Part shown: one piece after another, positions 25,061-47,560 of the stretch
Layout of the letters: every line of letters starts with the position of its first letter
How positions within the stretch are numbered: the stretch's first letter is position 1
Assembly (NCBI RefSeq): GCF_022436675.1
Contig: NZ_JAKUJZ010000003.1
Coordinates: 198,226-262,225 of the forward strand
Source of the DNA: Rheinheimera hassiensis
GTDB lineage: Bacteria > Pseudomonadota > Gammaproteobacteria > Enterobacterales > Alteromonadaceae
Length of the DNA stretch: 64,000 nucleotides
Reading direction: 5' to 3'
Notes under the pieces: generated by a model
The model's database searches: none
The model's input: the letters and a program-made list of their open reading frames with translations, nothing else
Told to the model about the DNA's origin: nothing
Translations under genes and position numbers: made by a program

Positions 25061-25105
25061 GTGAAACAATGATTGTTAACTATGAATAAAGTAAGGAATA
25101 CAACA

Positions 25106-28902: not shown

Positions 28903-29903
28903 CAGAGCCAGCAGGACAACCGAGCCCCTCAGCTTTACCGCCGGTGTTTGTCAGCGACTACTGGTTCAGTGCTTTTGCAGAGCATGTAAACCATAACAAA
29001 CACAATTTTAGCCTGCCTTTAAGCGGGCAGGCTAAAGTCGCTTTTTTTAGCAGCAATCCAAGCCAGCCGGGTAACACCCTGGACAGTATGACCAATTACT
29101 ATTCGCCAATTTTTGGTATTGCCGGGCAGCCGATAGCCACGCTGCCCTGTGCGGCGACATTACAACAACACGCCAGCATACTTTCAGCCTACGATTACAT
29201 TAATATTCTGCCGCTATACAGCAACCAGGCGCAGGCCTGGTGCCAAAGCTTTGCCACCTTAGGCTTTAAGGGCTTTATTTACCAACACTCGGTAAACTGG
29301 TACGAACCCGATATCACTAGCTTAGCGCAGTACTGGCAACGCCGGCCCAGCCAGCTGAAAAACACGCTGAAACGCAAACAGGAACTAATGAATAAAGACG
29401 GTAACTTTACCGTTAAAATATACAGCGAAGGTTCTGCAGAGGTACTGTTGCAGGCCCTGATTGATTACCATCAGGTGTATTACCACAGCTGGAAACGCTC
29501 TGAACCCACCCCGGCTTTTATCGACAGTATTTGCCAGCACAACTGGCAAATTAATGCCTTGCGTATTGGGGTCATTTACTACAATAACGAACCGATAGCA
29601 GCGCAAATCTGGTTTTTATACGATAAAACCGCCGCCATTTTCAAGCTGGCTTATGACCAAGACTTTACCCGTTTCAGCCCGGGGACAGTGCTGACTGCTG
29701 CACTACTTGAGCACGTTATTTGCCGAGATAACGTTAACACAGTAGATTTTCTTACCGGCAATGACGATTATAAAAAAGACTGGATGTCAGCAAAACAGCC
29801 GCTTTATGGTATTCAGCTATGCAATAAGCAGACATGGCGCGGCAAATTAAGAGCGCTGACAAATTATGCTGGCAATTTTAAGCACAAACCCGTGCCGAAA
29901 TAA
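28899..29903 (+). CDS. GNAT/FemAB-like acyltransferase, second copy
   Basis: A 334-residue relative of the preceding gene. The shared pattern is RRPSQLKNTLKRKQELMNKD, then IGVIYYNNEPIAAQIWFLYD and FSPGTVLTAALLEHVI, with a final VDFLTGNDDYKKDWM. The two proteins are only loosely similar and so are old paralogues or two members of one family. It starts at ATG 28899, overlapping the previous stop. Last gene of the second plus-strand run. Confidence 0.82.
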   Translation: MTEPAGQPSPSALPPVFVSDYWFSAFAEHVNHNKHNFSLPLSGQAKVAFFSSNPSQPGNTLDSMTNYYSPIFGIAGQPIATLPCAATLQQHASILSAYDYINILPLYSNQAQAWCQSFATLGFKGFIYQHSVNWYEPDITSLAQYWQRRPSQLKNTLKRKQELMNKDGNFTVKIYSEGSAEVLLQALIDYHQVYYHSWKRSEPTPAFIDSICQHNWQINALRIGVIYYNNEPIAAQIWFLYDKTAAIFKLAYDQDFTRFSPGTVLTAALLEHVICRDNVNTVDFLTGNDDYKKDWMSAKQPLYGIQLCNKQTWRGKLRALTNYAGNFKHKPVPK

Positions 29904-29933: not shown

Positions 29934-31004
29934 TCAGCTTAATGCCTTAACTATGTTTTGCAGGTGCTGTTTTGACAGAGCCTGATGCACTGGCAGTTGT
30001 ACCAGATGCTGCTGATAGTTGCTGACAACCCCGGTTACTGGTGTTGCAAGCTCTTCCCAGCGCAACACCTGAATTTGCTGCTGACGCAAGCGCGTAAAGC
30101 CATCAATATCATGCAGTAAAAACGGCAGTACATAAGGCACATCATGCTGTGTCAGTGTTGGGTATAATACCTGCCCTGCACTACTGTGCTGCAACTGCTG
30201 TGCAAGATACTGATAATTGTCCCGCCGCTGCCTGCTAATCGCTGCGTAATTACTGTGTAACATCAACCAGCGACTGGCTCGTAAACAATCGGCCGTTTGC
30301 ATAGCTGTGCGAAAATAACGCAAACCTGTATCAGCAGAGCCGGTTACCGGCCGGTTACCGGATCGCAGCGCTTTTAATTCTGTTATAAAATCCGGAATAA
30401 CCTGAGCTGAACCGCTAAAGCCGGGCAGGTATAACACGCCGCCATCTGCACTGCCGAGCGTTTTAGCAACACTGCTGACACTGGCGCTGATAGCAGGCGG
30501 TTGTGCCTCACAGGTTTGCCAGAAATGCACCAGGCTGTGTGCGTTATCTTCAATGACCAGTTTATTCGCTGCAAAAGCTTCCTGAATAAGCTCATCAGCA
30601 TTCTGGCTAAAACCAAAGTAGCGCACCACCACCACATGGGTTACCTGCGGGCTAAGTAAGTGGCTAAAAATAGCAATATCGGTACTTAAATCGGCTAACT
30701 GCGGGTAAAAAACAATGTTATAACCAGCATAAATAAATGGCTCTACTAACGCCGGGCAATGATAAGCCGGTAACAACACAGTATTTTGCTGTGAGCTCTG
30801 CTTTAAATGCAAAGCTGCCGCCGCCAGCGCATATCTGGCACGGCTGAATGTGCTGACATCGTTAACAGGTAGCGAATGCCGCCGTAAGCTACTGCCTTCT
30901 AAGCTAAAGGCAGGCTGAGCTTTAATCAGCGAAGGCGGGAAATGTTTGGCATCCATTAACGGCGCAGAAAATTGTACAGGCATTGACTCAGTCCATGAAT
31001 TCAC
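29934..31004 (-). CDS. DegT/DnrJ-like PLP-dependent aminotransferase
   Basis: A 356-residue fold-type I PLP protein. The pyridoxal lysine is probably Lys181 in SSVAKTLGSADGG, and Asp153 in LVIEDNAHS would contact the ring nitrogen. PAYHCPALVEPFIYAGYNI matches the DegT/AHBA-synthase group. It could make an amino sugar or a C7N-type precursor for the glycan (inference). It is alone on the minus strand, convergent with the GNAT pair and divergent from the hydrolases. In-frame ATGs at 31004, 30983 and 30956 compete and no strong ribosome site decides. Confidence 0.85.
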   Translation of the reverse strand: MNSWTESMPVQFSAPLMDAKHFPPSLIKAQPAFSLEGSSLRRHSLPVNDVSTFSRARYALAAAALHLKQSSQQNTVLLPAYHCPALVEPFIYAGYNIVFYPQLADLSTDIAIFSHLLSPQVTHVVVVRYFGFSQNADELIQEAFAANKLVIEDNAHSLVHFWQTCEAQPPAISASVSSVAKTLGSADGGVLYLPGFSGSAQVIPDFITELKALRSGNRPVTGSADTGLRYFRTAMQTADCLRASRWLMLHSNYAAISRQRRDNYQYLAQQLQHSSAGQVLYPTLTQHDVPYVLPFLLHDIDGFTRLRQQQIQVLRWEELATPVTGVVSNYQQHLVQLPVHQALSKQHLQNIVKALS

Positions 31005-31083: not shown

Positions 31084-31184
31084 ACAGCGGCCTAAATACA
31101 AAAAGTACCAAGATACAAACTTGGTCATCGCCTCCGCAACGGTTATCATAGGGCTTGCTCAGGTTTAAGCACAAGGAAGGCAAA

Positions 31185-32015
31185 GTGCAACAACATCCCC
31201 TCAGTACCGGCTTTATCCAACTACAACAGCGGCAGTTATTTCTTCGCGCCGTGCAAAACAGCACTGGCAACGGTCATGCCATTGTGGTTATTCCGCCTTT
31301 TGCCGAAGAAATGAATAAATCCCGTCATTTGATCAATGCAGCTATGCGCCAACTGGCCACTGCCGGTTACAGCTGCTTTATGCTGGATAATTATGGCACT
31401 GGCGACAGCGCCGGTGATTTAGATCAGGCCAGCGTAGATATCTGGCGCGATGATCTCTACCAATTATTGCTGCTGTTGCAGCAACAGGGTTACCAAAGTG
31501 TCAGCTTTATTGCGGTGCGCTTTGGCGTGATACAACTGTTCGACTTGCTGAATAAACATACTTTACCCTTGCCGGTGCAACAACTGGTGTTATGGCAACC
31601 GGTATTTGATGTTGGTAAATTCTGGCAACAGTTTTTACGGTTAAAAGTGGCAGAGGCCATGGCTGCAGGTAATAAAACCAGCCAGAAAGACCTCGAGCAA
31701 CAACTTAACAATGGCGAAAATATTGAAATTGCCGGTTACCCGATAAGCCCGGCGTTTTATCACAGCCTGCTCAATATCAACAGCAGCATTCCGGCGCAGT
31801 TAAACAGCGTGAATCTGCACTGGCTTGAAACGTCGCAACTGGATACCGTGGCCCTACCGGTACAAAAAATGCGTGACCACTTGCAACAACACTGCAAGCT
31901 AAACTATACCCAACTCAAAGCCGAGCCCTATTGGCAAACAGCCGAACTGGCCAGTGCAGAGCAACTTATTGCCCTTACACTACAACACTTAACTGAAGGC
32001 TCGCAGCATGACTGA
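31185..32015 (+). CDS. Exosortase A-associated alpha/beta hydrolase 2 (TIGR03101 type)
   Basis: A 276-residue hydrolase. The N-terminal VIPPFAEEMNKSRHLINAAM is the family signature. The nucleophile-elbow position reads IAVRFGVIQLF, where the usual Ser is not in a clear GxSxG; this is common in the subfamily as I recall it. FMLDNYGTGDSAGDLDQ is also typical. The start is GTG at 31185 with AAGGAAGG 4-8 nt upstream; the longer TTG frame at 31155 places the ribosome site inside the gene. It overlaps hydrolase 1 by 8 nt. The substrate is unknown; it co-occurs with the ligase/decarboxylase/ACP set. Confidence 0.88.
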   Translation: MQQHPLSTGFIQLQQRQLFLRAVQNSTGNGHAIVVIPPFAEEMNKSRHLINAAMRQLATAGYSCFMLDNYGTGDSAGDLDQASVDIWRDDLYQLLLLLQQQGYQSVSFIAVRFGVIQLFDLLNKHTLPLPVQQLVLWQPVFDVGKFWQQFLRLKVAEAMAAGNKTSQKDLEQQLNNGENIEIAGYPISPAFYHSLLNINSSIPAQLNSVNLHWLETSQLDTVALPVQKMRDHLQQHCKLNYTQLKAEPYWQTAELASAEQLIALTLQHLTEGSQHD

Positions 32016-32850
32016 ACACTATATCAGCCTGGCAGGCGCCGGTTATCAGCTAAGCGCGATTGTGCATGACGCCACTGCAACAACCGGTATGCTGCTTATT
32101 GTTGGTGGGCCACAGTACCGTGTTGGTAGCCACAGGCAGTTTGTTAAACTAAGCCGCTATCTGGCCACACAGGGCATACCATCAATGCGGCTGGATACTG
32201 CCGGTATGGGTGATAGCAGCGGCAGCAAAGCCGCGTTTTACCAGCAAACGGCCGATATTGAGCTGGCGATTGATGCTTTTTTTAAGCAGTGCCCGCAACT
32301 AACACAAGTGGTGCTGTGGGGCCTGTGTGATGCTGCCAGTGCCATTTTGATTAAACTCAACCGGCCAGACCCGCGCATCACTGGTGTAATACTGCTAAAC
32401 CCCTGGGTGCGCCAGCAGCAAAGCCATGCCAAAACCATGTTAAAACACTACTATTTAAAGCGCCTGCTAAGCAGGCAATTCTGGCATAAGCTATTTGGCG
32501 GCGGTTTGGCGCTACGGCGCAGCCTTGGCTCGTTCTGGCAGACATTACGAGCCAGCAAAACCCGCGCTGCTGCAGCTAGTGCCCAGCTTACAGTAACAGA
32601 GCAAAACTATGTTGCGGCTATGCTTAGCGGCTGGCAGCAATTTAACGGCAAAGTGTTGCTGATCAGCAGTGGTAACGATTTAACGGCGCAGGAGTTTTTG
32701 CAGTTATGTGCCGACAACCCAGCCTGGGGTAAGTGTCTGCAGGCTGCCGGGCACTATCATATCAGTGATGCCAGCCATACCTTCTCTACAGCGCTTTGGC
32801 GCGAGCAGGTTGAGCAACAAAGCTATAATTTTGTGCACACCACAAACTAA
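32008..32850 (+). CDS. Exosortase A-associated alpha/beta hydrolase 1 (TIGR03100 type)
   Basis: A 280-residue hydrolase. It has IVGGPQYRVGSHRQFVKLSR, the family signature, and RLDTAGMGDSSG. At the elbow position the sequence is LWGLCDAASA, so a Cys replaces the usual Ser. A late His lies in AGHYHISDASHTF. A thioesterase or acyltransferase role acting on the ACP- or CoA-bound intermediate is a fair inference. It overlaps hydrolase 2 by 8 nt. Confidence 0.9.
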   Translation: MTEHYISLAGAGYQLSAIVHDATATTGMLLIVGGPQYRVGSHRQFVKLSRYLATQGIPSMRLDTAGMGDSSGSKAAFYQQTADIELAIDAFFKQCPQLTQVVLWGLCDAASAILIKLNRPDPRITGVILLNPWVRQQQSHAKTMLKHYYLKRLLSRQFWHKLFGGGLALRRSLGSFWQTLRASKTRAAAASAQLTVTEQNYVAAMLSGWQQFNGKVLLISSGNDLTAQEFLQLCADNPAWGKCLQAAGHYHISDASHTFSTALWREQVEQQSYNFVHTTN

Positions 32851-32892
32851 GTGCTGTTAATACCGTTTGGCTAAATAACGCCAGGGAGCAGG

Positions 32893-35229
32893 ATGCTTAT
32901 GTACAGCAATAACAACGAACCGGCTTTGCACAAGTGGTTACTGTTGGCTTGTGTGCTTTATCTGGCCTTTATTATTTACGGCAGCCTGGTGCCGTTGCAG
33001 TATGTCGCGCTGCCGTTTAACGAGGCAATAGAGCGGTTTTGGCACATTCCTTATTTGCAGCTTGGCATACGATCAAGAGCAGACTGGGTAGCCAATATTC
33101 TGCTGTTTATCCCGTTCGCTTTTTTACTTTGTGCGCTTAGCTTCCGCCCCGGCGCACCTGCAATAAACTTGTTGCTGGCTGGCGTTATCTGGCTGCTTTG
33201 TGCCGCTTTGGCCGTAAGCATAGAATTTACCCAGTTGTATTTTCCACAGCGTACAGTGTCCATCAACGATATTATTGCTGAAACCACCGGCGCCATGCTG
33301 GGTATCATTTTGTATTGTTTCAGAGGCCGTCAGCTAAAACAGTTTTTGGCTTCACTGGCGCTTATTCGTGGCCAGGCTTCGGTAGTCACTTACCTGCTGA
33401 TTGGTTATATCGCCATTTTTATACTGTACAACCTGTTACCGCTGGATCTGACGTTAAGCCCGGTCGAACTGTATAAAAAATGGCGTGAAGGCCGCATTGT
33501 GTTGCTGCCATTTTCCGGTTACCGCGGCTCTGCAGCTGAAATTGGCTATGCAGTACTAAGCGATATTCTGCTTTGGTGCCCTATCGCCGTATTGTTGTAT
33601 CTGCAACAACAGCAGGCAGGTATCCGGTTGTACAGCAAGGTGCTGTTACTGGCGCTGCTGCTGGAATTTTGCCAACTGTTTGTCTATAGCCGGGTTACTG
33701 ATATCAGTGATGTGCTCTGCGCCTTAATTGCCACCTGGTTAAGCATAACGTTACTGCGCTTATGGCAGCACAAACCAGCCGGCAAAACAGACACCACCAC
33801 TGTACAGCTTAAACACGGCCTGCTGTGGAGCCTGGCTATACTGGCTTACAGTTTGTTTGTTTTAATATTATTCTGGTATCCGTTTAACTTTAATTTCGAC
33901 TGGGCTTTTATCAACCAAAGATTGCAAGTGGCACAGGATAAGGTATTGCTGGAATCGCTGTACTTTGGCACTGAGTACCGTGCTATTACCGCACTACTGC
34001 AAAAACTACTGCTATTTTTCCCACTTGGAATACTACTGGCACTGTTTCAACGCAAGCTGTCGCTGCGCTGGCAGCAACAAACCCTACAGATTGTTGGCAG
34101 TATTTATGTGATTAGCCTGGCATTATTATGCGAAGCCATGCAGCTGGCACTGCCCGGTAAAACTGTGGATATTACCGATGCCATACTGCAAATAGGTGGA
34201 GCTGCAGCAGGTTTTGGTTTTACCGTTTTTTTCGTCAACCGCCTGCACCGGCCAGAAACCGCTGAAGTAAATAGCACCAACGCCGCAGCGCCAGGCTTAT
34301 TAACTGTGCCACCAGCCAAAACTGCAGCAGGGCTTTATATAAAGCTGGCCAGCCATTTGGCTATATCCATGCTGGCTATGTTTTTGTTAAGCCGGTTGCC
34401 GGTAATACCCTACAATGTGCGTGAACTGCTAAGCGATAATCTCAGCGCTATTCCCGGCTTATGCCTGATGCTGTACCTGCTGGCTTTACCTGCCATCTTT
34501 ACGTTTAATACCTACGCCCGTTTTATCCTTTGGTCCCCTATGCTGTGCCTTACGCAGGGCCTGGCTATATTCTGGCTGCTGTATGCCACAGTGCCGGCAG
34601 AATCACTGTATGACATTGTTGGTACCCCGGTGACAACGCTACCACGGGCTCTTGAGCTAATGCTGCGCTTTATCGGCTTTTTTAGCCTGATCCAGTTTAA
34701 CTGCATGGCTGCAATGCAATTTATTTATAGCCGTAACAAAATACCCGCCACCATTTTATGGCTGGACGCGAATGCCGTTGTGGCTCTGCTCTGGTATCTG
34801 GCCGTAGTAAAAATGGCAGCAACCGACAATATTGTTGAACTGCTGGCTGATGGCGGCAGCCTGGTTGCCATAACTGCGCTGACTACGTGGCTGATGCTGT
34901 TATTCAGTGCTGCAGCATATCTGGCCCAACAATTCAGTACCCCGGTGCACACCCGCTGGAAATATATGCCGCTACTTATCTTATTTGTGCTGCCCCTGTC
35001 CTGGTGGCTGCTGCAAAACGCTACTGAAAGTGTTATCGTTAAATACCAGCAAGCTTACTCAGCGTTACAATTTTTGCTCAGTACGGACAGAACCCAGTAT
35101 GCCGCTCCGCTGCAATTATTTATGCGCTACAGCCTGGCTTTTATCACGCTGCTTGGGCTGTTGTGTTGGTTTTTTATTCCGGCTATAGCGCTGCGGCGCA
35201 CTATAAAATTCTCGGGTTCAGGGGCTTAA
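32893..35229 (+). CDS. Membrane protein with three tandem VanZ-like domains
   Basis: A 778-residue integral membrane protein. Three VanZ-like units of about 130 residues are visible. Each ends in a helix with a conserved acidic-x-x-Q-L element followed by (T/V)-D/N-I-(S/T/N)-D: SIEFTQLYFPQRTVSINDI, LLEFCQLFVYSRVTDISD and LCEAMQLALPGKTVDITDA. The C-terminal 250 residues add roughly six more helices without this motif. The biochemical role of VanZ proteins is unsettled (antibiotic tolerance, envelope). A ribosome site GGGAGCAGG serves ATG 32893 or ATG 32899. It precedes an anchored unknown protein by 7 nt. Confidence 0.85.
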   Translation: MLMYSNNNEPALHKWLLLACVLYLAFIIYGSLVPLQYVALPFNEAIERFWHIPYLQLGIRSRADWVANILLFIPFAFLLCALSFRPGAPAINLLLAGVIWLLCAALAVSIEFTQLYFPQRTVSINDIIAETTGAMLGIILYCFRGRQLKQFLASLALIRGQASVVTYLLIGYIAIFILYNLLPLDLTLSPVELYKKWREGRIVLLPFSGYRGSAAEIGYAVLSDILLWCPIAVLLYLQQQQAGIRLYSKVLLLALLLEFCQLFVYSRVTDISDVLCALIATWLSITLLRLWQHKPAGKTDTTTVQLKHGLLWSLAILAYSLFVLILFWYPFNFNFDWAFINQRLQVAQDKVLLESLYFGTEYRAITALLQKLLLFFPLGILLALFQRKLSLRWQQQTLQIVGSIYVISLALLCEAMQLALPGKTVDITDAILQIGGAAAGFGFTVFFVNRLHRPETAEVNSTNAAAPGLLTVPPAKTAAGLYIKLASHLAISMLAMFLLSRLPVIPYNVRELLSDNLSAIPGLCLMLYLLALPAIFTFNTYARFILWSPMLCLTQGLAIFWLLYATVPAESLYDIVGTPVTTLPRALELMLRFIGFFSLIQFNCMAAMQFIYSRNKIPATILWLDANAVVALLWYLAVVKMAATDNIVELLADGGSLVAITALTTWLMLLFSAAAYLAQQFSTPVHTRWKYMPLLILFVLPLSWWLLQNATESVIVKYQQAYSALQFLLSTDRTQYAAPLQLFMRYSLAFITLLGLLCWFFIPAIALRRTIKFSGSGA

Positions 35230-35236
35230 TCATTCC

Positions 35237-36538
35237 ATGCTAAATAGGTTATCGCGCTATTTTTTGCGCAGCGTATTGTTGTTAGCAGTGCTTACCGTGG
35301 CTTTGTTTTTTCTTATTACATCAAAACCGGTGTTATCACAGCGTACTATAGAATCCAGCGACGTTACTACGGCACAACGTGTGCTGTCTGACACGGTGCG
35401 ACATCTGGCGCAACCCAACGGCAATATAAAACTGGTTTTTGAGCAAAAACAGTTAGACGCGTTGATGAACGTCGCCAGCTATGCCCTGCCACAAGTAGAG
35501 TTCAGTGGTGTGCTTAATCCGTTTGGTGTAGCTTTGCATGGCCAGGCAAACCTGCCGCTAAGCTGGCCCAGACGCGGTGTAAAAACGTCATGTTTGTTTA
35601 TGCCGTCAGACACAGGTTTCGCTATTGAACACTGCAAACTGGGCGCAATTACTTTACCGGGCTGGATTGCTAACCCACTACTCCGCCTAATGGTACGCTC
35701 GGTCATTGCAGCACCGGCAGATCAGCAGTTGCTAACGTTGTTTGCCAGAGGCGAGCTGATAAATAACCGCCTGCACTTTGAAGCGGCTAATGCCAGCCCG
35801 ATTAAACTAAGCCTGCATCCGCAAATTCACCGCCCATTTGGTTTGGGCCAGGATCAGAGCGCGGCAGCACCAGATGTTGAGTTTTACCTGCAGCAGTTAA
35901 AGCAATTACAACGCCAGCATAAACGCGAGCGCCGGCTGGCATTTTTTGCTCACGAGTTGTTACTTGTTGCGACAAACCGTGCTGATAACAGCAATTTGGA
36001 AACCGAGTATAAAAACGCGCTATGGGCTTTGGCCGTCGCATTTGCCAGCAAAAGATTTATTTACTACGCCAATCCTAATGTAAAGCTGCACCAGGTGCCG
36101 AATATGCCCCCCATGCTGCTAAACGGCCGGCGCGACCTTACACTGCACTTTTTATATTCGGCGGTGCTGCAAATGCTGGGTAATACTCAGCTATCGCAGC
36201 AAATTGGCAACCTGAAAGAAATCATGGATGCAGACCGGGACAAAGGTGGCTCAGGCTTCAGCTTTGTTGACCTGGCGGCAGACAGAGCTGGCACCCACTT
36301 TGCTGAGCACCTTGCATCAGTAACACCGCAACAGTTAAGCCAGTTTAACAGCCTGACTTTTGAACAAGCGATAATGCCGCCAACGCGGGATTTACCGGAG
36401 GGGTTAACTGAACAACAAGTACAGCAGCAACTTGGCGGTTATAACGGTGCCGGTTTTAAACAGCTGGAGCAGGAAATTACCCGGCGCATTGCCGCGTTAA
36501 AACTGTATAACAGCCAGCCAGAGCCGGCTGAGATTTAA
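35237..36538 (+). CDS. Membrane-anchored protein of unknown function
   Basis: A 433-residue protein with one N-terminal membrane helix (SVLLLAVLTVALFFLITS) and a large periplasmic part. A barrel-like stretch VEFSGVLNPFGVALHGQANL is followed by a cysteine pair near 118-133 and a helical C-terminal half (SGFSFVDLAADRAGTHFAEH). I do not recognise the family. The 7-nt gap suggests co-translation with the VanZ protein. Its stop overlaps the convergent sulfotransferase stop by 3 nt. Confidence 0.8.
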   Translation: MLNRLSRYFLRSVLLLAVLTVALFFLITSKPVLSQRTIESSDVTTAQRVLSDTVRHLAQPNGNIKLVFEQKQLDALMNVASYALPQVEFSGVLNPFGVALHGQANLPLSWPRRGVKTSCLFMPSDTGFAIEHCKLGAITLPGWIANPLLRLMVRSVIAAPADQQLLTLFARGELINNRLHFEAANASPIKLSLHPQIHRPFGLGQDQSAAAPDVEFYLQQLKQLQRQHKRERRLAFFAHELLLVATNRADNSNLETEYKNALWALAVAFASKRFIYYANPNVKLHQVPNMPPMLLNGRRDLTLHFLYSAVLQMLGNTQLSQQIGNLKEIMDADRDKGGSGFSFVDLAADRAGTHFAEHLASVTPQQLSQFNSLTFEQAIMPPTRDLPEGLTEQQVQQQLGGYNGAGFKQLEQEITRRIAALKLYNSQPEPAEI

Positions 36539-37497
36539 AAATCATCGCGGTAATAGCGCCCGGCGTTAAATTGCTGCACGATATTTTTTATCCGCAGCTG
36601 CACGTCATCAGGCAACTGTTTGCGCCACTTATAGGCAGATTGCAGCGGGTCTTTAGTGGTACTGTAATAAGCGCTGTTGTCGCTGCCATGAACTGACTGC
36701 GCCAGATATTGCAGACATTGCTGATCTGCTTTTAAGCCACAAAATGCCAGGCACTGCTGCAACACCTCTTGTGGCTTTTTACATAAGTTCTCGTACACCA
36801 GTACCATGTTGCTGCCGTCACCCGCACATTGCGCCAGCGCAAAATCATTAATAATGCCCCAGCGTACGGCCAGCCGCTCTTCTTTAGTCATCTGCTTTAA
36901 ACTGTCCAGACTAAAGCGCTGCTCGCCACTTTGCTGTAATAATTTACTGTACAGATCCCAGTCTTCCCAAATTGGTAAACCACCATCAAACAAGCCGGCG
37001 TCCTGCCCTTTTAACGTAGAGGCAATATGGCCACAAGGATGGCGTAATATGTGGATACTGCGGCCTGGCACCAGCTGTTTAATCGCCGCCATACGGCCAA
37101 GCGACTCGATTGACTTCCAGACGATTTGTTGCTGCTCAGATTGCAACCGTAAGGGTTTGATAAACCGGGGCGCCCCTAAGCGGCCAGCTATTTTAGTGGC
37201 GTACGCACTGCCCAGAAACAGCAGCCAGCTAACCGGGTTAAGGTAATCTTTAGCAAAAAACGGCCGCGAGGCAATCACTTTTTCTGCTTTGCTGGCAAAC
37301 CACAACTCAAGTTGTGACTGCAGCGGATACTGTGTGGCTTCATCTGCCTTTAGCAATAACGGAATAGCGATATTGGGCTGCACGCTGTCTGGCTCATGCA
37401 AATAGTATGTCTGGCGCTGTGCATCAAACAGTTTACCAAGCCAGGTAGTGCCTGAACGGGGCATGCCAAATAACAGAATACAGTGTTTACTCGTCAT
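36535..37497 (-). CDS. PAPS-dependent sulfotransferase family protein
   Basis: A 320-residue sulfotransferase. The 5'-phosphosulfate loop is LLFGMPRSGTTWLGKLF at about residues 8-24, and the 3'-phosphate motif is HILRHPCGHIAS. It probably sulfates a sugar or lipid of the exopolysaccharide. It is the last gene of a minus-strand operon that runs from the AMP-ligase (42.9 kb) to here, 61 nt after the MBOAT gene. Its end overlaps the convergent anchored protein. Confidence 0.87.
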   Translation of the reverse strand: MTSKHCILLFGMPRSGTTWLGKLFDAQRQTYYLHEPDSVQPNIAIPLLLKADEATQYPLQSQLELWFASKAEKVIASRPFFAKDYLNPVSWLLFLGSAYATKIAGRLGAPRFIKPLRLQSEQQQIVWKSIESLGRMAAIKQLVPGRSIHILRHPCGHIASTLKGQDAGLFDGGLPIWEDWDLYSKLLQQSGEQRFSLDSLKQMTKEERLAVRWGIINDFALAQCAGDGSNMVLVYENLCKKPQEVLQQCLAFCGLKADQQCLQYLAQSVHGSDNSAYYSTTKDPLQSAYKWRKQLPDDVQLRIKNIVQQFNAGRYYRDDF

Positions 37498-37558
37498 TAA
37501 AATATCCTTATTAAGCCCATAATATTGCTAATTGTTCACACCTGAATGGCAGTTTTTT

Positions 37559-38950
37559 TCAAAACTGAAAATAAATAAAAGGTGCTTCGCCCGCCCCCAG
37601 CATAAGCATACTGTAAAGTAACAGCACTACGACTGAGGCCTGCAGCAGTTGTGGTATGGTCAGATAACGCTGTTGCCATAACGCAATATAATGCTGCGGG
37701 ATCAAATGCAGTATTACGGCCACCAGCAACGCCACCGCGCCGGCAGCAGTGAGATGAAACGATAACGCCATGTTATGCCAGATAGCCTGCAAATAGCCAC
37801 CGGCGTGATGCAGATCCTCAGCCCTGAACATTACCCTTAGCAAACATACCAGGAAAAACGTTCTAAGCACTGCCAGTGCCCAGCGCCAGCCTGTTTGCTT
37901 GTCAAACCAGCCGTACCTGCGCATATAGCGCTCAAACGCCACCAAGACGCCATGGCAGAAACCATACAGCAGAAAATTCCAGCCTGCGCCATGCCATACC
38001 CCAATGGCAACAAAGGTTAGCACCAAATTGATATAAACATTGCCGTGTTTGCTGCCACCCAGCCCATGGTAAAGGTAGTCGCGGAAAAAAGACGACATAG
38101 AAATATGCCAGCGCTGCCAGAAATTAGAAATACTGTCGGCCAGATAAGGCCGGTTAAAATTCACCGGTAACTGATAACCTAATAAACGGGCACAGCCCCT
38201 GGCTATGTCGGTATAGGCTGAGAAATCCAGATAAACCTGAAAGCTGTAGCCAATTAATGCCAATACTAAAAATGCAGACGACTGGTTAGCATAATCAGCA
38301 AAGGCAGGGTCAACCAGATGCAGTGCCAGTACATCTGCCAGAAGCACTTTTTTTATCAGGCCACGGATAATAAGCATCACGCCTTCCTGCTGCGCAGCAC
38401 TGTCAGCATAAGTATGCTGTGTCAGTTGCGGCAGAAAATAACTGGCGCGCACTATTGGCCCGGCAACCAGCTGCGGAAAAAACGATACAAACAGTGCAAA
38501 GTCGGCCAGCGAGCCAACAGGGTCGAGCTGCCGCCGATAAATATCTATGGTGTAAGACAGCGCCTGAAAGGTATAAAACGAGATCCCCACCGGCAAAATA
38601 ATATGCAGGATATTAATATGCGATGACATACCCAGCATAGCAGCGACAGCATCCAGATTAGTGAGGAAGAAATTAAAATACTTAAACAGCCCTAACACGC
38701 CCAAACTAAACACCAGTGATACCGCCAACCAGATTTTTGGCCGGGCCGAGTACCGAATTAACCGGCCACAGTAGAAATTCACTGCCGTCATAGCGAACAG
38801 TAGCGCACCAAAACGCCAATCCCAGCTCATATAAAACCAGTAACTGGCCAACAGCAGCAGCATTTTCTTCTGGCCGTTATGTTGAATAAACCGCAGTAAA
38901 ATGACCAATGCGATTAAAAATACATAAAAATGAAATGAGGTAAAACTCAT
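37559..38950 (-). CDS. MBOAT-family O-acyltransferase (AlgI-like)
   Basis: A 463-residue membrane protein with about eleven helices. The AlgI/DltB-type core is present: GISFYTFQALSYTIDIYR, YLDFSAYTDIARG, FWQRWHISMSSFFRDYLYHG and the catalytic histidine region VAIGVWHGAGWNFLLYGFCH. It should move acyl groups across the inner membrane for periplasmic polymer acylation. The partner is the SGNH protein encoded just upstream, with a 4-nt ATGA overlap. Confidence 0.93.
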   Translation of the reverse strand: MSFTSFHFYVFLIALVILLRFIQHNGQKKMLLLLASYWFYMSWDWRFGALLFAMTAVNFYCGRLIRYSARPKIWLAVSLVFSLGVLGLFKYFNFFLTNLDAVAAMLGMSSHINILHIILPVGISFYTFQALSYTIDIYRRQLDPVGSLADFALFVSFFPQLVAGPIVRASYFLPQLTQHTYADSAAQQEGVMLIIRGLIKKVLLADVLALHLVDPAFADYANQSSAFLVLALIGYSFQVYLDFSAYTDIARGCARLLGYQLPVNFNRPYLADSISNFWQRWHISMSSFFRDYLYHGLGGSKHGNVYINLVLTFVAIGVWHGAGWNFLLYGFCHGVLVAFERYMRRYGWFDKQTGWRWALAVLRTFFLVCLLRVMFRAEDLHHAGGYLQAIWHNMALSFHLTAAGAVALLVAVILHLIPQHYIALWQQRYLTIPQLLQASVVVLLLYSMLMLGAGEAPFIYFQF

Positions 38951-39999
38951 GGTGCCACCTGCCGGGTGTCTTTTAACACCTGCGCCAGGGCTGCGGCGAT
39001 GGCCAGCTCACCTTTGGCTGAAAAATGCACGCTGTCAGTAAAGTACTCTCGCCCGCCAGGCACCTGCTCTGACAAACGGACATAATGCACATCAGTGTAC
39101 TCAGCGGCAATTTGCTGTTGCACCTGGTTGTATCGTTCAAACACCTCGGAAAACTGTCCGACTGTTAAACAAGGCGTGTAATAAAGTGCTGAAGCGGCCA
39201 GTTGTTGTTGTAACTGCAGCGGCTGATCGTTGCGAAAGGCTCGTAAATTTTCAGCAAACAGTATCGTTTTAACCTGTCGCTGCTGCGCAAGTTCAACTAT
39301 CTGTCGCAGCGAGGCAGCATATTGCTGCAGGTAAGGGCTAAGATCAGGCATCGGGGAATATTTGTAAGGCACGTAGCGTAAATCTGTGCTGTTTTTCAAC
39401 AGCAAATCCACGCTTAACAACCATTTGGGTGCCTGTAACTGCGGCAAAGCATAACTTTTAGCAGCGCCGTTTCGCTGACATAAACGGCCCACATCGTTAC
39501 TTAAACCAGAATACAGAATTAGCACATCTTCAGACAAGGCGGCCAGTTGCTCTGCATACAGCAAATACTGGCTGCTGATATCGTTTCCCGGTATACCGGC
39601 ATTAATCACTTCAAGCGGTATATCACTGCTGATCCGCTGCAATATTGCCGGAAAGGTATCGTCGTTAGTAGCAGCATAGGCGCCATAAGTGCTGGAGGCA
39701 CCCAGTGCAATAACTCTGATATTGCTGTTTGTTTTAGGCCCTACAGCAGCAGAGCGCAACCCCAGTTGGTTGCTTTTTACTTTAATGCTACTGCCTTCAA
39801 ACTCAACATCGGCTGCCAGCAACTGATAACCATTATGCTGCACAAACAGCGAGCCTTGTGCGCTGTTGTCAGCGAAGGCTGCGGTAAGAATACTGTTGCC
39901 AAACTTCAGCTGCGCCCTGAGCTGTAATAAAAACTCCATCAGCATAAATAAAATCAGCGCCAGCAATAACGTTTTCCATATCTGACTGTCCTTAGCCAT
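38947..39999 (-). CDS. SGNH/GDSL-type acyltransferase partner of the MBOAT protein
   Basis: A 350-residue protein with an N-terminal membrane anchor (TLLLALILFMLMEFLLQL). SGNH blocks are visible: VIALGASSTYGAYA with the nucleophile Ser, NAGIPGND, SGLSNDVG and the final DSVHFSAKG giving Asp and His. It is periplasmic and probably takes an acyl group delivered by the MBOAT protein to a sugar, as AlgJ/AlgX do. Its gene overlaps MBOAT by 4 nt. Confidence 0.85.
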   Translation of the reverse strand: MAKDSQIWKTLLLALILFMLMEFLLQLRAQLKFGNSILTAAFADNSAQGSLFVQHNGYQLLAADVEFEGSSIKVKSNQLGLRSAAVGPKTNSNIRVIALGASSTYGAYAATNDDTFPAILQRISSDIPLEVINAGIPGNDISSQYLLYAEQLAALSEDVLILYSGLSNDVGRLCQRNGAAKSYALPQLQAPKWLLSVDLLLKNSTDLRYVPYKYSPMPDLSPYLQQYAASLRQIVELAQQRQVKTILFAENLRAFRNDQPLQLQQQLAASALYYTPCLTVGQFSEVFERYNQVQQQIAAEYTDVHYVRLSEQVPGGREYFTDSVHFSAKGELAIAAALAQVLKDTRQVAP

Positions 40000-40043
40000 G
40001 TTAACGCTCTCTGTTTAGTTAGCTCTCTGTTTATAGCTTTGTA

Positions 40044-41303
40044 TCAGAGTAAAATCTCAACCACTGCCGGATGGCCAAGAAAATCCTGCGGGCTGGCCGT
40101 GGGGCCATAAGCACCGGACTGATACACCACAACCCAATCTCCCACTTCGGCGACCGGCAGGCTTACCTTATCCGCTAGTATGTCCAGTGGCGTACACAAA
40201 GGCCCAACTACAGTAACCAGCTCAGTGTCGGCATGCTGCATTTTATTGCCAATAGCCACCGGATAATTTTTGCGGATCACCTGGCCAAAATTACCGGAGT
40301 TCGCCAGATGGTGATGTAAACCACCGTTACACACCAGATAGGTAGTGCCACGGGACACCTTTTTATCTACCACCTGACAAGCATAAACGCCTGCCTCTGC
40401 CACCAGATAACGGCCAAGTTCAATCACCAGCTCAATACCGGCAAGCGCTTGTTCGTGTTGCTGTAGTAATTGTGTCAGCGATAAACCAATAGGCTGTAAA
40501 TCAAGCCGTTTTTCACCAGGGAAATATGGAATACCAAAACCACCACCCAGATTGATCAAATCAGGCCGGTATGGGCAAGCGGCAACCAGTTTAGCTGCCA
40601 GCCCAAATGTAAGCTGGTGTGCTTCTGTCAGTGCTTCAGTTTTTAGATTCTGCGAGCCGCAGAAAATATGAAAACCACGTAACTTCACCGGCATAGCAGC
40701 TATCTGGGTCAGCAGCTCGAATACTTGCTCTTCATCAATACCAAAAGGCTTAGCGCCACCGGCCATTTTCATGCCTGACGCTTTGAGCTCAAACGCCGGA
40801 TTAACGCGCAGTGCCACCTGTGGTGTTACTGTGTGCAACTCTGCCAGACGGCAAATACGCTGCAGCTCGTTGGCCGATTCCACATTTAGTGTAACGCCGG
40901 CGGTAATAGCGGCGGCAAGCTCGGTATCGGTTTTCCCCGGACCGGCAAAACTGATATCGGCTACCGGCATACCGCTTTGTATCGCCAGCAGCATTTCTTT
41001 TTGCGATGCCACATCAAAGCCGTCTACTAACGGGCGCATGTGCTGCACAACAGGCCAGTATGGGTTGGCTTTTACCGCATAGTGCAACTTAATTCTGTTA
41101 GGAATTGCCGCCCTAAAGCGTTGTATTTGTTGATTAATAACCTGGCGGTCATAAGCATAAAATACTGATTTGCCAAGCATGGTGCTAATAGCACTAAGGC
41201 TGAAACGGCCCAGCAGCAGATTATCGCCCGGACAGCTAAACTGCGACATTAACTCATGTTGTGGCGCTTGTGGCCGTGTTTCTGTATTCAGGGTACTGCT
41301 CAT
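40044..41303 (-). CDS. PLP-dependent decarboxylase, exosortase A system-associated (TIGR03099)
   Basis: A 419-residue fold-type III PLP decarboxylase related to diaminopimelate/ornithine decarboxylases. The PLP lysine is Lys78 in LHYAVKANPYW. The barrel has GFGIPYFPGEKRLDL, HIFCGSQNL and ELGRYLVAEAG; the C-terminal sheet has VVGPLCTPLDIL and YQSGAYGPTASPQDF. It co-occurs with the AMP-ligase and ACP, so it may decarboxylate an amino acid tethered to ACP (inference). It overlaps the ligase gene by 4 nt. Confidence 0.93.
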   Translation of the reverse strand: MSSTLNTETRPQAPQHELMSQFSCPGDNLLLGRFSLSAISTMLGKSVFYAYDRQVINQQIQRFRAAIPNRIKLHYAVKANPYWPVVQHMRPLVDGFDVASQKEMLLAIQSGMPVADISFAGPGKTDTELAAAITAGVTLNVESANELQRICRLAELHTVTPQVALRVNPAFELKASGMKMAGGAKPFGIDEEQVFELLTQIAAMPVKLRGFHIFCGSQNLKTEALTEAHQLTFGLAAKLVAACPYRPDLINLGGGFGIPYFPGEKRLDLQPIGLSLTQLLQQHEQALAGIELVIELGRYLVAEAGVYACQVVDKKVSRGTTYLVCNGGLHHHLANSGNFGQVIRKNYPVAIGNKMQHADTELVTVVGPLCTPLDILADKVSLPVAEVGDWVVVYQSGAYGPTASPQDFLGHPAVVEILL

Positions 41304-42892
41304 CTGGATGCCTCATTAAAATAACCCCGGTACTGCTCTGACAATAGCTTACGGTCAATTTTGCCATTGGCATTTTTCGGTAAACCCGGTTGCAAAATTA
41401 AGGCTTTGGGCTGCATAAAATTAGGCAAACTGCGCTTTAGCTGGGTTGTCCAGTTAGCAATGTCCGGTTCATTACCGTCTTTGCAGGCAAATAACACCAA
41501 AATGGCTTGCTCCAGCTCAGGGTGCGGCACACCAATGGCGGCAACATCAACCAGTGCAGGGCTAAGTTGGTAAACGGCTTCTTCCACTTCAGTAGGGCTA
41601 ACCCGGTAACCTGAAGTTTTAATCATTTCATCGCGCCGGCCAATAAAGTATAAAAAGCCATCTTCATCGCAGCGCACTGTATCGCCAGACCACACTGCAA
41701 GTTGGGGTAGCTGAATACCTTTAGGTGCTACGGGATCAAACTTAAACCGTTCGGCTGTTTTATCCGGGGCATTCCAGTATCCCAGGCTAACCAGCGGCCC
41801 GCGATGCACCAGCTCACCTGGTTCATTCGGCGCGCAGATACTGCCATCTTCACGCACAACCACAATTTCGGCATTCGGAATAGCTTTGCCCATAGAGCCG
41901 GGCCGCTTTTCCAGCTCAGCTGGCGGTAAATAGGTAGAGCGAAAGGCCTCGGTTAAACCATACATTAAATAGGGTTCAGCCTTATTAAATACCCGTTGCA
42001 ACTGCTGTAACAAGGCTTGTGGCATAGCACCACCGGAGTTGGTTAGGTAACGCACGGTATCAGCACTGCCTTCAACCCAGTTGGCTTTGGCCAGCTGCGC
42101 CCACAAAGGTGGTACTGCAGCAATGCCGGTTACTCCGTATTGCTTCACAGTGCGCACGACATCCTGCACCAGGAAAAAATCCAGCAACACTACACTGGCG
42201 CCGGTTAAAAACGCAGTGGTCAGCTGGCTTAAGCCATAATCAAAACTCAGGGGTAGTAATGCCAGTAAGACATCATCGGTGGTGTTGTTGAGGTAGCTTG
42301 ATACGCTTTGCGCGCCCACCAACATATTGCGGTGCGATAACACCACCCCTTTGGGTTTACCGGTGCTGCCCGAGGTATATAGAATAGCCGCCATGTCCTG
42401 ATCGGTTGCATGCGGATATAACTGCAATGTTCTGTGGCTGACGTCGGTATAAAATGACTTCAACTGAATATGCGCCAGCGGGCTCATATCTTCAGCGACA
42501 TCAGTCAATAACACCGTATGTAAGTCACTGCACAAATGCAGCTCCTCTTCTAAACTGGCCAGCCGGTCTTTACTGGTAATAAGCACCCGAACATTACAAT
42601 CCTGCAGGATATGTGCAACCTGCGCCGCCTTTAACCCCGGGTTCACCGGCACAAATACTGCACCGGCCATTGCGCAGCCAAACAGGCTGAACACGGTTTC
42701 AAATTGTTTGGGCAGGTACACCGCCACCCGGTCAAAGCGCTGAACGTCCTGCGCTTGCAACTGCATGGCAGTGGTAGTTACGCCGGTTGCAAGTTCAGCA
42801 TAAGTTAAGGCGGTGTTTTTAAAGTACAGTGCAGGACGCTTAGGAAAACGCGCAGCAGACTGGGTAACGATATCGTGGAGATTTTTGGTCAT
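41300..42892 (-). CDS. Acyl-CoA ligase/AMP-forming, exosortase A system-associated (TIGR03098)
   Basis: A 530-residue AMP-binding enzyme. Motifs: the ATP loop ILYTSGSTGKPKGVVLSHRN, YGLTEAFRST, WSGDTVRCDEDGFLYFIGR and a late catalytic Lys in LPKNANGKIDRKLL. It activates a carboxylate and should load it on the ACP encoded divergently. The ATG at 42892 follows AAGGA with 5-6 nt spacing; the longer frame to 42913 has no site. First gene of the minus-strand operon ligase, decarboxylase, SGNH, MBOAT, sulfotransferase. Confidence 0.94.
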   Translation of the reverse strand: MTKNLHDIVTQSAARFPKRPALYFKNTALTYAELATGVTTTAMQLQAQDVQRFDRVAVYLPKQFETVFSLFGCAMAGAVFVPVNPGLKAAQVAHILQDCNVRVLITSKDRLASLEEELHLCSDLHTVLLTDVAEDMSPLAHIQLKSFYTDVSHRTLQLYPHATDQDMAAILYTSGSTGKPKGVVLSHRNMLVGAQSVSSYLNNTTDDVLLALLPLSFDYGLSQLTTAFLTGASVVLLDFFLVQDVVRTVKQYGVTGIAAVPPLWAQLAKANWVEGSADTVRYLTNSGGAMPQALLQQLQRVFNKAEPYLMYGLTEAFRSTYLPPAELEKRPGSMGKAIPNAEIVVVREDGSICAPNEPGELVHRGPLVSLGYWNAPDKTAERFKFDPVAPKGIQLPQLAVWSGDTVRCDEDGFLYFIGRRDEMIKTSGYRVSPTEVEEAVYQLSPALVDVAAIGVPHPELEQAILVLFACKDGNEPDIANWTTQLKRSLPNFMQPKALILQPGLPKNANGKIDRKLLSEQYRGYFNEASR

Positions 42893-42997
42893 AGTATCCT
42901 TCAGACCTTTCACTTTTTATCCCTTTGTGTGCAATAATAAAACAGTTTTGCGGAAAATCCGACTGTAATTTATCTACTTTTTGTAGTTTAACCGCAG

Positions 42998-43013
42998 CGG
43001 CACCCTTTACGCA
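42998..43013 (+). promoter_or_regulatory. Weak sigma-54-like -24/-12 site before the ACP gene
   Basis: CGGCACCCTTTACGCA has GG and GC exactly 12 nt apart, as sigma-54 promoters require, and matches GGCAC. The -12 part (ACGC instead of TTGC) is degenerate. It lies about 36 nt before the acyl carrier protein start. The match is weak, so it is a candidate only. Confidence 0.3.
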
Positions 43014-43048
43014 AATCAGGGAACTACCTGTCATTTTAAGGAAGCATT

Positions 43049-43291
43049 ATGCCACACCAGCAACTTCTCGCTGATATCTTACGCGCCGTCTTGCAAATAG
43101 ATAAACAATTTACCGACGATACCCCCTTGCTGGGCGCTATTCCAGAGTTTGATTCTATGGCAGTTATTGCTGTAATAACCGAACTGGAAGAGCAACTGGG
43201 TATCCAGATTAATGATGATGAAATATCCGCCGACGTATTTGAAAACTTTGGCCAGTTAAATAAATTCGTCACCGAAAAACAAGCTGCCTGA
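43049..43291 (+). CDS. Acyl carrier protein of the exosortase A small-molecule set
   Basis: An 80-residue ACP. The phosphopantetheine serine is Ser36 in PEFDSMAVI. Helices I to III and the acidic surface (ELEEQLGIQINDDEIS) are normal. It has AAGGAAGC before the ATG. It is divergent from the AMP-ligase and should carry the ligase product as a thioester for the decarboxylase and hydrolases. Confidence 0.95.
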   Translation: MPHQQLLADILRAVLQIDKQFTDDTPLLGAIPEFDSMAVIAVITELEEQLGIQINDDEISADVFENFGQLNKFVTEKQAA

Positions 43292-47543: not shown

Positions 47544-47560
47544 TTGGCACCAAACATGCT
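47544..47560 (+). promoter_or_regulatory. Sigma-54 (RpoN) promoter of the PEP-CTERM gene
   Basis: TTGGCACCAAACATGCT matches the -24/-12 consensus TTGGCACG-N4-TTGCW, with GG and GC exactly 12 nt apart. Predicted transcription starts near 47571, about 70 nt before the PEP-CTERM ATG. In other XrtA species the PrsK/PrsR pair controls such genes with sigma-54; no prsK or prsR lies in this window, so they would be elsewhere. Confidence 0.85.

What the first reader, a model, noticed from the sequence alone, without database searches (positions are those of the whole stretch)
31185..43291. Ligase/ACP/PLP-decarboxylase/hydrolase set: an uncharacterised small-molecule pathway tied to XrtA
Seen: an AMP-ligase (41300-42892) and PLP decarboxylase (40044-41303) in one operon, a dedicated ACP (43049) divergent from it, and two alpha/beta hydrolases (31185, 32008). 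Hydrolase 1 has Cys where the elbow Ser is expected (LWGLCDAASA). Known: these families track exosortase A loci, but I know of no product assigned. Inference: an amino acid is activated, held on ACP, decarboxylated, then released or transferred by the hydrolases, giving an amine or amide that may decorate the glycan. Here the operon also contains MBOAT, SGNH and sulfotransferase genes, which suggests the product is placed on the polymer.
Basis: partly seen in the sequence, partly recalled or inferred. Interest (0 to 1): 0.75.

Follow-up and report, generated by a model that had tools for sequence, protein, structure and literature searches.

The report
Beta-alanine loading module for exopolysaccharide
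Five orphan genes beside a bacterial exosortase locus look like a machine that fixes aspartate to a carrier protein and converts it to beta-alanine there, probably to decorate the cell's outer polysaccharide; it can be tested directly with purified proteins.

Summary
The genes are real. Ligase, PLP decarboxylase and hydrolase 1 pass the NCBIfam cut-offs of TIGR03098, 03099 and 03100; hydrolase 2 misses that of TIGR03101 by 10 bits; the ACP is a short carrier. The decarboxylase's nearest solved relative is BtrK, named as a glutamyl-ACP decarboxylase (359 bits; next protein 246). The ligase pocket is closest to VinN and keeps the residues published as reading aspartate's amino and carboxyl groups: Asp 92 of 92 (1 gap), Ser/Thr 93 of 93, Arg 93 of 93. 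Prediction: L-Asp, activated at its side chain, becomes beta-alanyl-ACP. Hydrolase 1 keeps Cys (43 of 43), Asp and His (40 of 43 each); hydrolase 2 has Arg for the nucleophile (43 of 44, one gap) and no conserved His. MBOAT and SGNH are not part of the set (3 and 2 of 95 loci). The set also lies in polysaccharide loci on plasmid records without exosortase, as in Sinorhizobium meliloti. The final acceptor is inferred, not shown.

The parts
41300..42913 (-). AMP-forming ligase, TIGR03098; predicted L-aspartate (side-chain carboxyl):ACP ligase, VinN-like pocket Asp225/Ser293/Arg325 (window protein numbering; equivalents of VinN Asp230/Ser299/Arg331)
40044..41303 (-). fold-type III PLP decarboxylase, TIGR03099; predicted beta-aspartyl-ACP alpha-decarboxylase, BtrK-like, motif PLCTPLD, PLP lysine Lys78
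43049..43291 (+). stand-alone acyl carrier protein, phosphopantetheine Ser36 in DSMA
32008..32850 (+). hydrolase 1, TIGR03100; alpha/beta hydrolase with Cys107-Asp224-His257; predicted beta-alanyl transferase or thioesterase
31155..32015 (+). hydrolase 2, TIGR03101-like; alpha/beta hydrolase fold with Arg122 at the nucleophile elbow and no conserved His: presumed pseudo-hydrolase partner of hydrolase 1
38947..39999 (-). SGNH/GDSL protein, downstream of the decarboxylase; accessory in this genome
37559..38950 (-). MBOAT acyltransferase (overlaps the SGNH gene by 4 bases); accessory in this genome, probably O-acetylation (inference)
36535..37497 (-). sulfotransferase (Sulfotransfer_3); found in this window only among the loci compared
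25073..26905 (+). second asparagine-synthase-like protein with a degenerate N-terminal glutaminase part; recurrent neighbour of the set (30 of 95 loci by clustering)
27832..28902 (+). PF13480 (Acetyltransf_6) transferase a; recurrent neighbour (this profile in 18 of 95 loci)
28767..29903 (+). PF13480 (Acetyltransf_6) transferase b
29934..31004 (-). DegT-type aminotransferase (weak profile match), between the transferases and hydrolase 2
11071..12657 (+). exosortase A, TIGR03109, same EPS locus

Best explanation
A carrier-protein module that makes beta-alanyl-ACP for an extracellular polysaccharide pathway. (1) The ligase adenylates L-aspartate on its side-chain carboxyl and loads it on the stand-alone ACP. 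(2) The PLP decarboxylase removes the alpha-carboxyl while the residue sits on the ACP, leaving beta-alanyl-S-ACP. (3) Hydrolase 1, with a Cys nucleophile and partnered by the apparently dead hydrolase 2, takes the beta-alanyl (or oligo-beta-alanyl) group from the ACP and passes it to an acceptor in the polysaccharide pathway. Steps 1-2 rest on pocket residues, nearest relatives and gene linkage, with close published parallels (VinN/VinL/VinO, AfcQ/AfcK/AfcP). Step 3 is inference from conserved catalytic residues and linkage alone; the acceptor is not identified. No step has been tested biochemically here. The confidence given is for steps 1-2 in a polysaccharide context; step 3 alone is about 0.35.
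For: Decarboxylase: a profile of 13 members scores BtrK (L-glutamyl-[BtrI ACP] decarboxylase) 359 bits, then 6knh 246 (listed as probable diaminopimelate decarboxylase; recalled as SbnH, not from a call), then 2p3e, a diaminopimelate decarboxylase, 231; Cys-Thr-Pro of PLCTPLD in 96 of 96, where LysA of the same genome has GPVCETGD; a tree puts 20 family members with BtrK and 6knh, apart from 8 LysA at 100/100. Ligase: the pocket segment hits VinN at 53 bits, the next protein at 31; Asp230 92 of 92 (1 gap), Ser299 as Ser 60/Thr 33, Arg331 93 of 93; Arg absent there in 7 of 7 other AMP ligases whose motif could be read. Published roles: Asp230 and Ser299/Arg331 of VinN recognise amino and carboxyl of methylaspartate (passage of PMC7756342); AfcQ activates L-Asp, loads AfcK, and AfcP decarboxylates it there, in vitro (passages of PMC12186527). 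Linkage: ligase and decarboxylase co-directional neighbours in 86 of 92 loci, ACP within 450 bp of a set gene in 47 of 51; hydrolase 1 in 15 of 143 genomes, all with the decarboxylase, in 5 of the 15 on another contig of the draft. Polysaccharide context on plasmid records without exosortase.
Against: No substrate was tested. BtrK uses glutamate, so GABA-ACP is not excluded. Over the whole protein a fatty-acid CoA ligase, FadD5, is not far behind VinN (239 against 264 bits), so the case rests on the pocket. VinN Phe231 is Tyr in 62 and Ala in 30 members, so pocket size varies. The tree does not resolve BtrK from 6knh as nearest (87/29) and has long branches. Three of 18 set-bearing genomes lack hydrolase 1 (one is 75% complete), and the fetched S. 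meliloti and Aureimonas stretches lack both hydrolases, so the hydrolases cannot be the only outlet. Only 38 of 95 loci hold all five genes in the fetched stretch (many are cut by contig ends). Linkage to polysaccharide genes does not show that the polymer is the acceptor.
Confidence: 0.66

Rival explanations
1. Same machine, but the substrate is L-glutamate loaded at the gamma-carboxyl and the product is 4-aminobutyryl (GABA)-ACP, as in butirosin.
For: The nearest solved decarboxylase, BtrK, acts on glutamyl-ACP by its PDB name.
Against: The ligase pocket is VinN-like, with Asp/Ser/Arg placed for an aspartate-length residue.
Confidence: 0.15
2. The module makes a secreted small molecule (a lipid- or peptide-linked beta-alanine compound like AFC-BC11), and its place in polysaccharide loci reflects co-regulation only. 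(Concerns the fate; shares steps 1-2 with the best explanation.)
For: The closest characterised enzyme sets make natural products.
Against: No ketosynthase or condensation-domain family was named among the 34 window ORFs scanned with NCBIfam (not every ORF of the window, and some lists were capped); in S. meliloti and Aureimonas the set sits among glycosyltransferases, deacetylase and O-antigen ligase.
Confidence: 0.2
3. A Dlt-like system: beta-alanyl-ACP is the donor for the MBOAT protein, which hands the group across the membrane to the SGNH protein and the polymer.
For: Ligase, decarboxylase, SGNH and MBOAT are on one strand with gaps of at most 44 bases; MBOAT matches DltB at 144 bits.
Against: Below DltB's cut-off of 375; MBOAT in 3 of 95 other loci, SGNH in 2; the ligase is nearer to VinN than to DltA (264 against 193 bits).
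Confidence: 0.1
4. The set supplies free beta-alanine for pantothenate in bacteria without PanD, with hydrolase 1 as thioesterase.
For: The window's genome has no panD match; panD is found in 8 of 18 set-bearing genomes against 85 of the other 125.
Against: The window's genome has a pyridoxal-type aspartate decarboxylase, TIGR03799, 968 bits, over its cut-off; 8 of 18 set genomes do have panD; a carrier-bound route is needless for free beta-alanine; no hydrolases in the S. meliloti stretches.
Confidence: 0.04
5. Ordinary paralogues: an acyl-CoA ligase for a fatty acid and a LysA copy, with unrelated hydrolases.
For: NCBI names the ligase acyl-CoA ligase, and LysA is the decarboxylase's second-best NCBIfam model.
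Against: Amino-binding Asp and carboxylate-binding Arg are kept, the CE[ST]xD motif of LysA is replaced by CTPLD, and the genome has a separate LysA.
Confidence: 0.05

Closest known systems
VinN / VinL / VinO (vicenistatin beta-amino acid loading)
   Same: Stand-alone adenylation enzyme with Asp230/Ser299/Arg331, stand-alone ACP, PLP decarboxylase acting on the ACP-bound amino acid
   Different: There the residue is 3-methylaspartate and feeds a polyketide synthase; here the set lies in polysaccharide loci, mostly with two alpha/beta hydrolases. VinO's sequence was not compared
AfcQ / AfcK / AfcP (AFC-BC11, Burkholderia)
   Same: L-Asp loaded at the side chain and decarboxylated on the carrier to beta-alanine, shown in vitro in the paper (passages)
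   Different: Lipopeptide pathway with iterative loading; no sequence comparison with AfcQ/AfcP was made here
BtrK / BtrI (butirosin)
   Same: Nearest solved decarboxylase, named for an amino acid bound to an ACP
   Different: Glutamate substrate; antibiotic pathway
Dlt system (DltA-D, D-alanylation; description recalled)
   Same: Amino-acid ligase + carrier + MBOAT + SGNH-like protein in one region, polymer decoration
   Different: Adds a decarboxylase; MBOAT below DltB's cut-off; MBOAT/SGNH not conserved with the set
NCBIfam 'exosortase A system-associated' families TIGR03098-TIGR03101
   Same: The genes match these named but functionally unassigned families
   Different: Names give no product; the core also occurs on plasmid records without exosortase

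Membership tests
TIGR03098 ligase | curated score cut-off 592.35 bits | tested here: met
   724.4 bits
TIGR03099 decarboxylase | curated score cut-off 478.45 bits | tested here: met
   584.5 bits
TIGR03100 hydrolase 1 | curated score cut-off 168.45 bits | tested here: met
   297.2 bits
TIGR03101 hydrolase 2 | curated score cut-off 202.75 bits | tested here: not met
   193.1 bits; position next to hydrolase 1 and Arg elbow agree with the relatives
VinN-type aspartate-side-chain adenylation enzyme | Asp230, Ser299, Arg331 equivalents | tested here: met
   Asp 92 of 92 (1 gap), Ser/Thr 93 of 93, Arg 93 of 93; window has Asp, Ser, Arg; roles
VinN-type aspartate-side-chain adenylation enzyme | shortened beta13-beta14 loop | tested here: inconclusive
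   gap-free alignment with VinN over this stretch; no structure of the ligase was modelled
VinN-type aspartate-side-chain adenylation enzyme | adenylates Asp or 3-MeAsp at the side chain | not testable with these tools
   needs an enzyme assay
BtrK-type carrier-bound amino acid decarboxylase | nearer to BtrK than to diaminopimelate decarboxylases, without the CE[ST]xD motif | tested here: met
   359 against 246 and 231 bits; CTP 96 of 96; LysA of the genome CETGD
BtrK-type carrier-bound amino acid decarboxylase | acts on the ACP-bound, not the free, amino acid | not testable with these tools
   needs an enzyme assay
VinN/L/O macrolactam starter systems | second adenylation enzyme (VinM), acyltransferase (VinK), amidohydrolase (VinJ), polyketide synthase | not tested
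   no dedicated search made
Dlt D-alanylation | DltB above its cut-off (375 bits) | tested here: not met
   143.8 bits
Dlt D-alanylation | MBOAT + SGNH conserved with ligase + carrier | tested here: not met
   MBOAT 3 and SGNH 2 of 95 loci, stretches of limited length
Exosortase-A-dependent set | occurs only with an exosortase | tested here: not met
   2 of 18 set genomes (G052, 100% complete; G104, 85%) without an exosortase A match; 0 matches on the two plasmid records (their chromosomes were not searched)
Catalytic alpha/beta hydrolase (hydrolase 1) | nucleophile, acid and His at the usual places | tested here: met
   Cys 43 of 43, Asp 40 of 43, His 40 of 43; they follow strands 100-106, 215-221 and 248-252 of the model; geometry not measured
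Catalytic alpha/beta hydrolase (hydrolase 2) | nucleophile and His | tested here: not met
   Arg at the elbow 43 of 44 (one gap); no column with His in over 40%

The most novel reading that the evidence does not exclude
Many environmental proteobacteria charge-modify their exopolysaccharide with beta-alanine, or with short beta-alanine chains since the AfcQ-type ligase can iterate, by a carrier-protein route: a Gram-negative counterpart of D-alanylation, in which a Cys alpha/beta hydrolase paired with an Arg-elbow pseudo-hydrolase is the aminoacyl transferase. In the window's species the MBOAT/SGNH pair may have been recruited to the same operon as a second outlet.
Probability: 0.3. Interest if true: 0.82.

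Novelty: new variant of a known kind. Interest (0 to 1): 0.62.

Why it matters
Four protein families of exosortase A bacteria carry names without a function. The evidence gives them a concrete reaction (L-Asp to beta-alanyl-ACP) that a simple mass-spectrometry experiment can test, and it moves the search for the product from 'something with exosortase' to 'perhaps an aminoacylated polysaccharide', with the three-gene core available in the laboratory species Sinorhizobium meliloti. If right, it brings enzymology known from antibiotics into the chemistry of floc and biofilm matrices, and gives a role to a co-inherited hydrolase pair of which one member looks catalytically dead.

Tried and rejected
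Dlt-like reading as the general answer: dropped because MBOAT/SGNH are rare near the set. PanD replacement: the window genome has a pyridoxal-type aspartate decarboxylase of TIGR03799, though panD is less frequent in set genomes (8 of 18 against 85 of 125), which speaks against dismissing this rival outright. Sigma-54 boxes: 104 matches against 109 expected, no support at the ligase/ACP gap. Two unassigned neighbour genes looked GNAT-like to my eye (a 224-338 aa family in 11 loci; a 282-295 aa protein upstream of the ligase in S. meliloti and Aureimonas, with relatives in L098 and L122); profile comparison gave under 1% probability, Pfam none for one member of the first and for two of the second, no PDB match for the S. 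meliloti protein, so neither is claimed as a transferase. Literature: the listings of searches show no title or abstract start about the set (54 found 0 papers; one listed 10 of 17); I did not open most listed papers. Passages of two floc papers (PMC4784049, PMC9850573) have 0 hits for decarboxylase, acyl and hydrolase. The VinN structure paper is not held, so VinN residue roles come from passages in PMC7756342 and PMC11253843. Foldseek and VIA-align gave lipases and feruloyl/cinnamoyl esterases at the top for hydrolase 1 and VIA-align the same for hydrolase 2; these show the fold, not the reaction.

Full report
Observation. Around 6.5-48 kb it holds an exosortase A polysaccharide locus: EpsB-like transferase, two deacetylase-like proteins, FemAB-like protein, exosortase A, amidotransferases, glycosyltransferases, flippase, PrsT and a PEP-CTERM protein. 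Ligase and decarboxylase overlap by 4 bases; SGNH follows after 44 bases, MBOAT overlaps SGNH by 4, and the sulfotransferase follows after 61 (coordinates). Hydrolase 2 scores 193 bits against TIGR03101's cut-off of 203, the only one of the four NCBIfam matches below its threshold.

The set is a unit. In 143 genomes of the class the decarboxylase occurs in 18, hydrolase 1 in 15 and hydrolase 2 in 17. All 15 hydrolase 1 genomes are among the 18, and hydrolase 2 lies beside it in all 15; the two further hydrolase 2 genomes (G014, G045) have sub-cut-off matches of 102-123 bits. In 5 of the 15 (G015, G017, G038, G104, G134) the hydrolases are on another contig than the decarboxylase, so the link is not by close position alone, though these are drafts. 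Ligase and decarboxylase are co-directional neighbours in 86 of 92, judged by the distance of their 3' ends; ACP lies within 450 bases of a set gene in 47 of 51, and in 26 of the 41 loci with both hydrolases it is just upstream of hydrolase 2. The window's arrangement, ACP divergent from the ligase, is shared by L043-L049; of these L048 shows no hydrolases in its stretch.

Decarboxylase. The best solved relative is BtrK (241 bits; 6knh 169; the next, a diaminopimelate decarboxylase, 112). With a profile of 13 members BtrK reaches 359, 6knh 246 and the diaminopimelate decarboxylase 2p3e 231. 6knh is listed as a probable diaminopimelate decarboxylase; I recall it as SbnH of staphyloferrin B, which no call shows. 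BtrK is named in the PDB listing as the decarboxylase of L-glutamyl-[BtrI ACP]. Cys-Thr-Pro and Asp of PLCTPLD are kept in 96 of 96 members and the PLP lysine in 95 of 96, one being a gap; BtrK has PLCTPED and 6knh QLCTPKD at this place, while LysA of the same genome has GPVCETGD. A tree of 20 family members, BtrK, 6knh and 8 LysA separates LysA at 100/100; BtrK next to the family has only 87/29, with long branches. So this family is not LysA, and its best relative works on a carrier-bound substrate.

Ligase. Searched whole, the top solved matches are amino-acid adenylation domains; VinN (264 bits) is the best match over a single domain, FadD5, a fatty-acid CoA ligase, has 239 and DltA 193 (LgrA's higher total sums two domains, 222 and 170 or 109). 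The whole protein therefore does not settle the substrate. With the pocket segment alone VinN stands out, 53 bits against 31 for the next protein, a 4-chlorobenzoyl-CoA ligase. Aligned to VinN, over 93 family sequences (92 loci and the window): Asp230 is Asp in 92 of 92 (one gap), Ser299 is Ser in 60 and Thr in 33, Arg331 is Arg in 93 of 93; Phe231 is Tyr in 62 and Ala in 30. Seven other AMP ligases with a readable motif, five from the same genome and two from neighbouring loci, have no Arg there. From a passage of PMC7756342: Asp230 and Ser299/Arg331 of VinN are proposed to recognise the amino and carboxyl groups of methylaspartate and are kept in BolO, which is proposed to load aspartate through its beta-carboxyl; deletion of the BtrK-like bolN was not rescued by beta-alanine. 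From passages of PMC12186527: AfcQ, a VinN-type enzyme with the equivalent Arg, activates L-Asp and not beta-Ala, loads the carrier AfcK, and the PLP enzyme AfcP turns the bound Asp to beta-Ala, with repeated loading. From section 5 of PMC11284099: FlvN uses Asp, and decarboxylation on the ACP precedes the next step. The reading is that the window's ligase, ACP and decarboxylase make beta-alanyl-ACP. This is inference from residues and relatives.

Where the group goes. The three-gene core occurs in polysaccharide loci on records without exosortase: S. meliloti pSymB (27 plasmid records hold the ligase; annotation of strain ml45; ligase-decarboxylase-ACP in a row in Rm41) and an Aureimonas plasmid. 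The ml45 and Aureimonas records have no exosortase match (chromosomes not searched). No hydrolase 1 or 2 was found in the fetched stretches of 19-33 kb. So the more constant partner seems to be the polysaccharide, and the exosortase link is an association: 16 of 18 set genomes have an exosortase A match, 13 over the cut-off, against 28 and 14 of the other 125 (Fisher p about 1e-7). Recurrent neighbours that might supply or accept the group are asparagine-synthase-like proteins (30 of 95 loci by clustering; 36 by a profile that may also catch the TIGR03108 amidotransferase, 22 of the 38 complete loci), PF13480 transferases (18 of 95; 14 of 38) and DegT aminotransferases (14; 8). Which of these, if any, receives beta-alanine is unknown.

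MBOAT, SGNH, sulfotransferase. The MBOAT match to DltB is far under the cut-off. The plain reading, from general knowledge of such pairs, is O-acetylation added in this lineage. A Dlt-like use of beta-alanyl-ACP is possible and kept as a rival.

Novelty. The enzymology is known from antibiotics and lipopeptides; what is new is its assignment to unassigned families, its place in polysaccharide loci of many proteobacteria, and the Cys-hydrolase/pseudo-hydrolase pair. One library search for the family names found no paper, and the listings of other searches showed none about the set; the library lacks most subscription journals, so this is not proof of absence.

Noticed in passing
25073-26905: Second asparagine-synthase-like protein whose N-terminal glutaminase part is degenerate: no Cys at position 2 in the 31 mechanical starts listed (some have Cys a few residues on), as recalled for amide synthetases that use another amine; 30 of 95 set loci have one.
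   Followed up: partly
47545-47559: Sigma-54-like site (1 mismatch) about 20 bases before the first start codon of the PEP-CTERM PepA frame; passages of a paper on Aquincola report RpoN-dependent pepA. The total number of sites in the window is at chance level.
   Followed up: no
L123 17229-17532: In S. meliloti ml45 the ACP is split over two frames, and the decarboxylase matches in two pieces in 4 of the 30 listed plasmid records, so the trio may be decaying in parts of the species.
   Followed up: partly
L098:6172-7020, L122:1857-2705, L123:13505-14392, L124:13563-14432: A 282-295 aa protein (no Pfam match for the two tested) beside hydrolase 1 or the ligase; unassigned.
   Followed up: partly
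L055:4375-5058 and 10 other loci: A 224-338 aa family (no Pfam match for the one tested), within 600 bases of a set gene or a polysaccharide deacetylase in 9 of 11 loci.
   Followed up: partly
50476-51249 and 48504-50471: Exosortase-associated acyltransferase (TIGR03694) and a ThiF-type protein; a relative of the acyltransferase lies in the fetched stretch of 19 of 80 named loci.
   Followed up: no
17937-19364: PaaK-like adenylating protein inside the exosortase A locus, function open.
   Followed up: no
G000:C51 about 377-429 kb: Very large genes with many adenylation-domain matches (open frame of 10026 codons), NRPS-like, in the same genome.
   Followed up: no
G000 whole genome: No panD match, but a pyridoxal-type aspartate decarboxylase (TIGR03799) is present.
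   Followed up: yes
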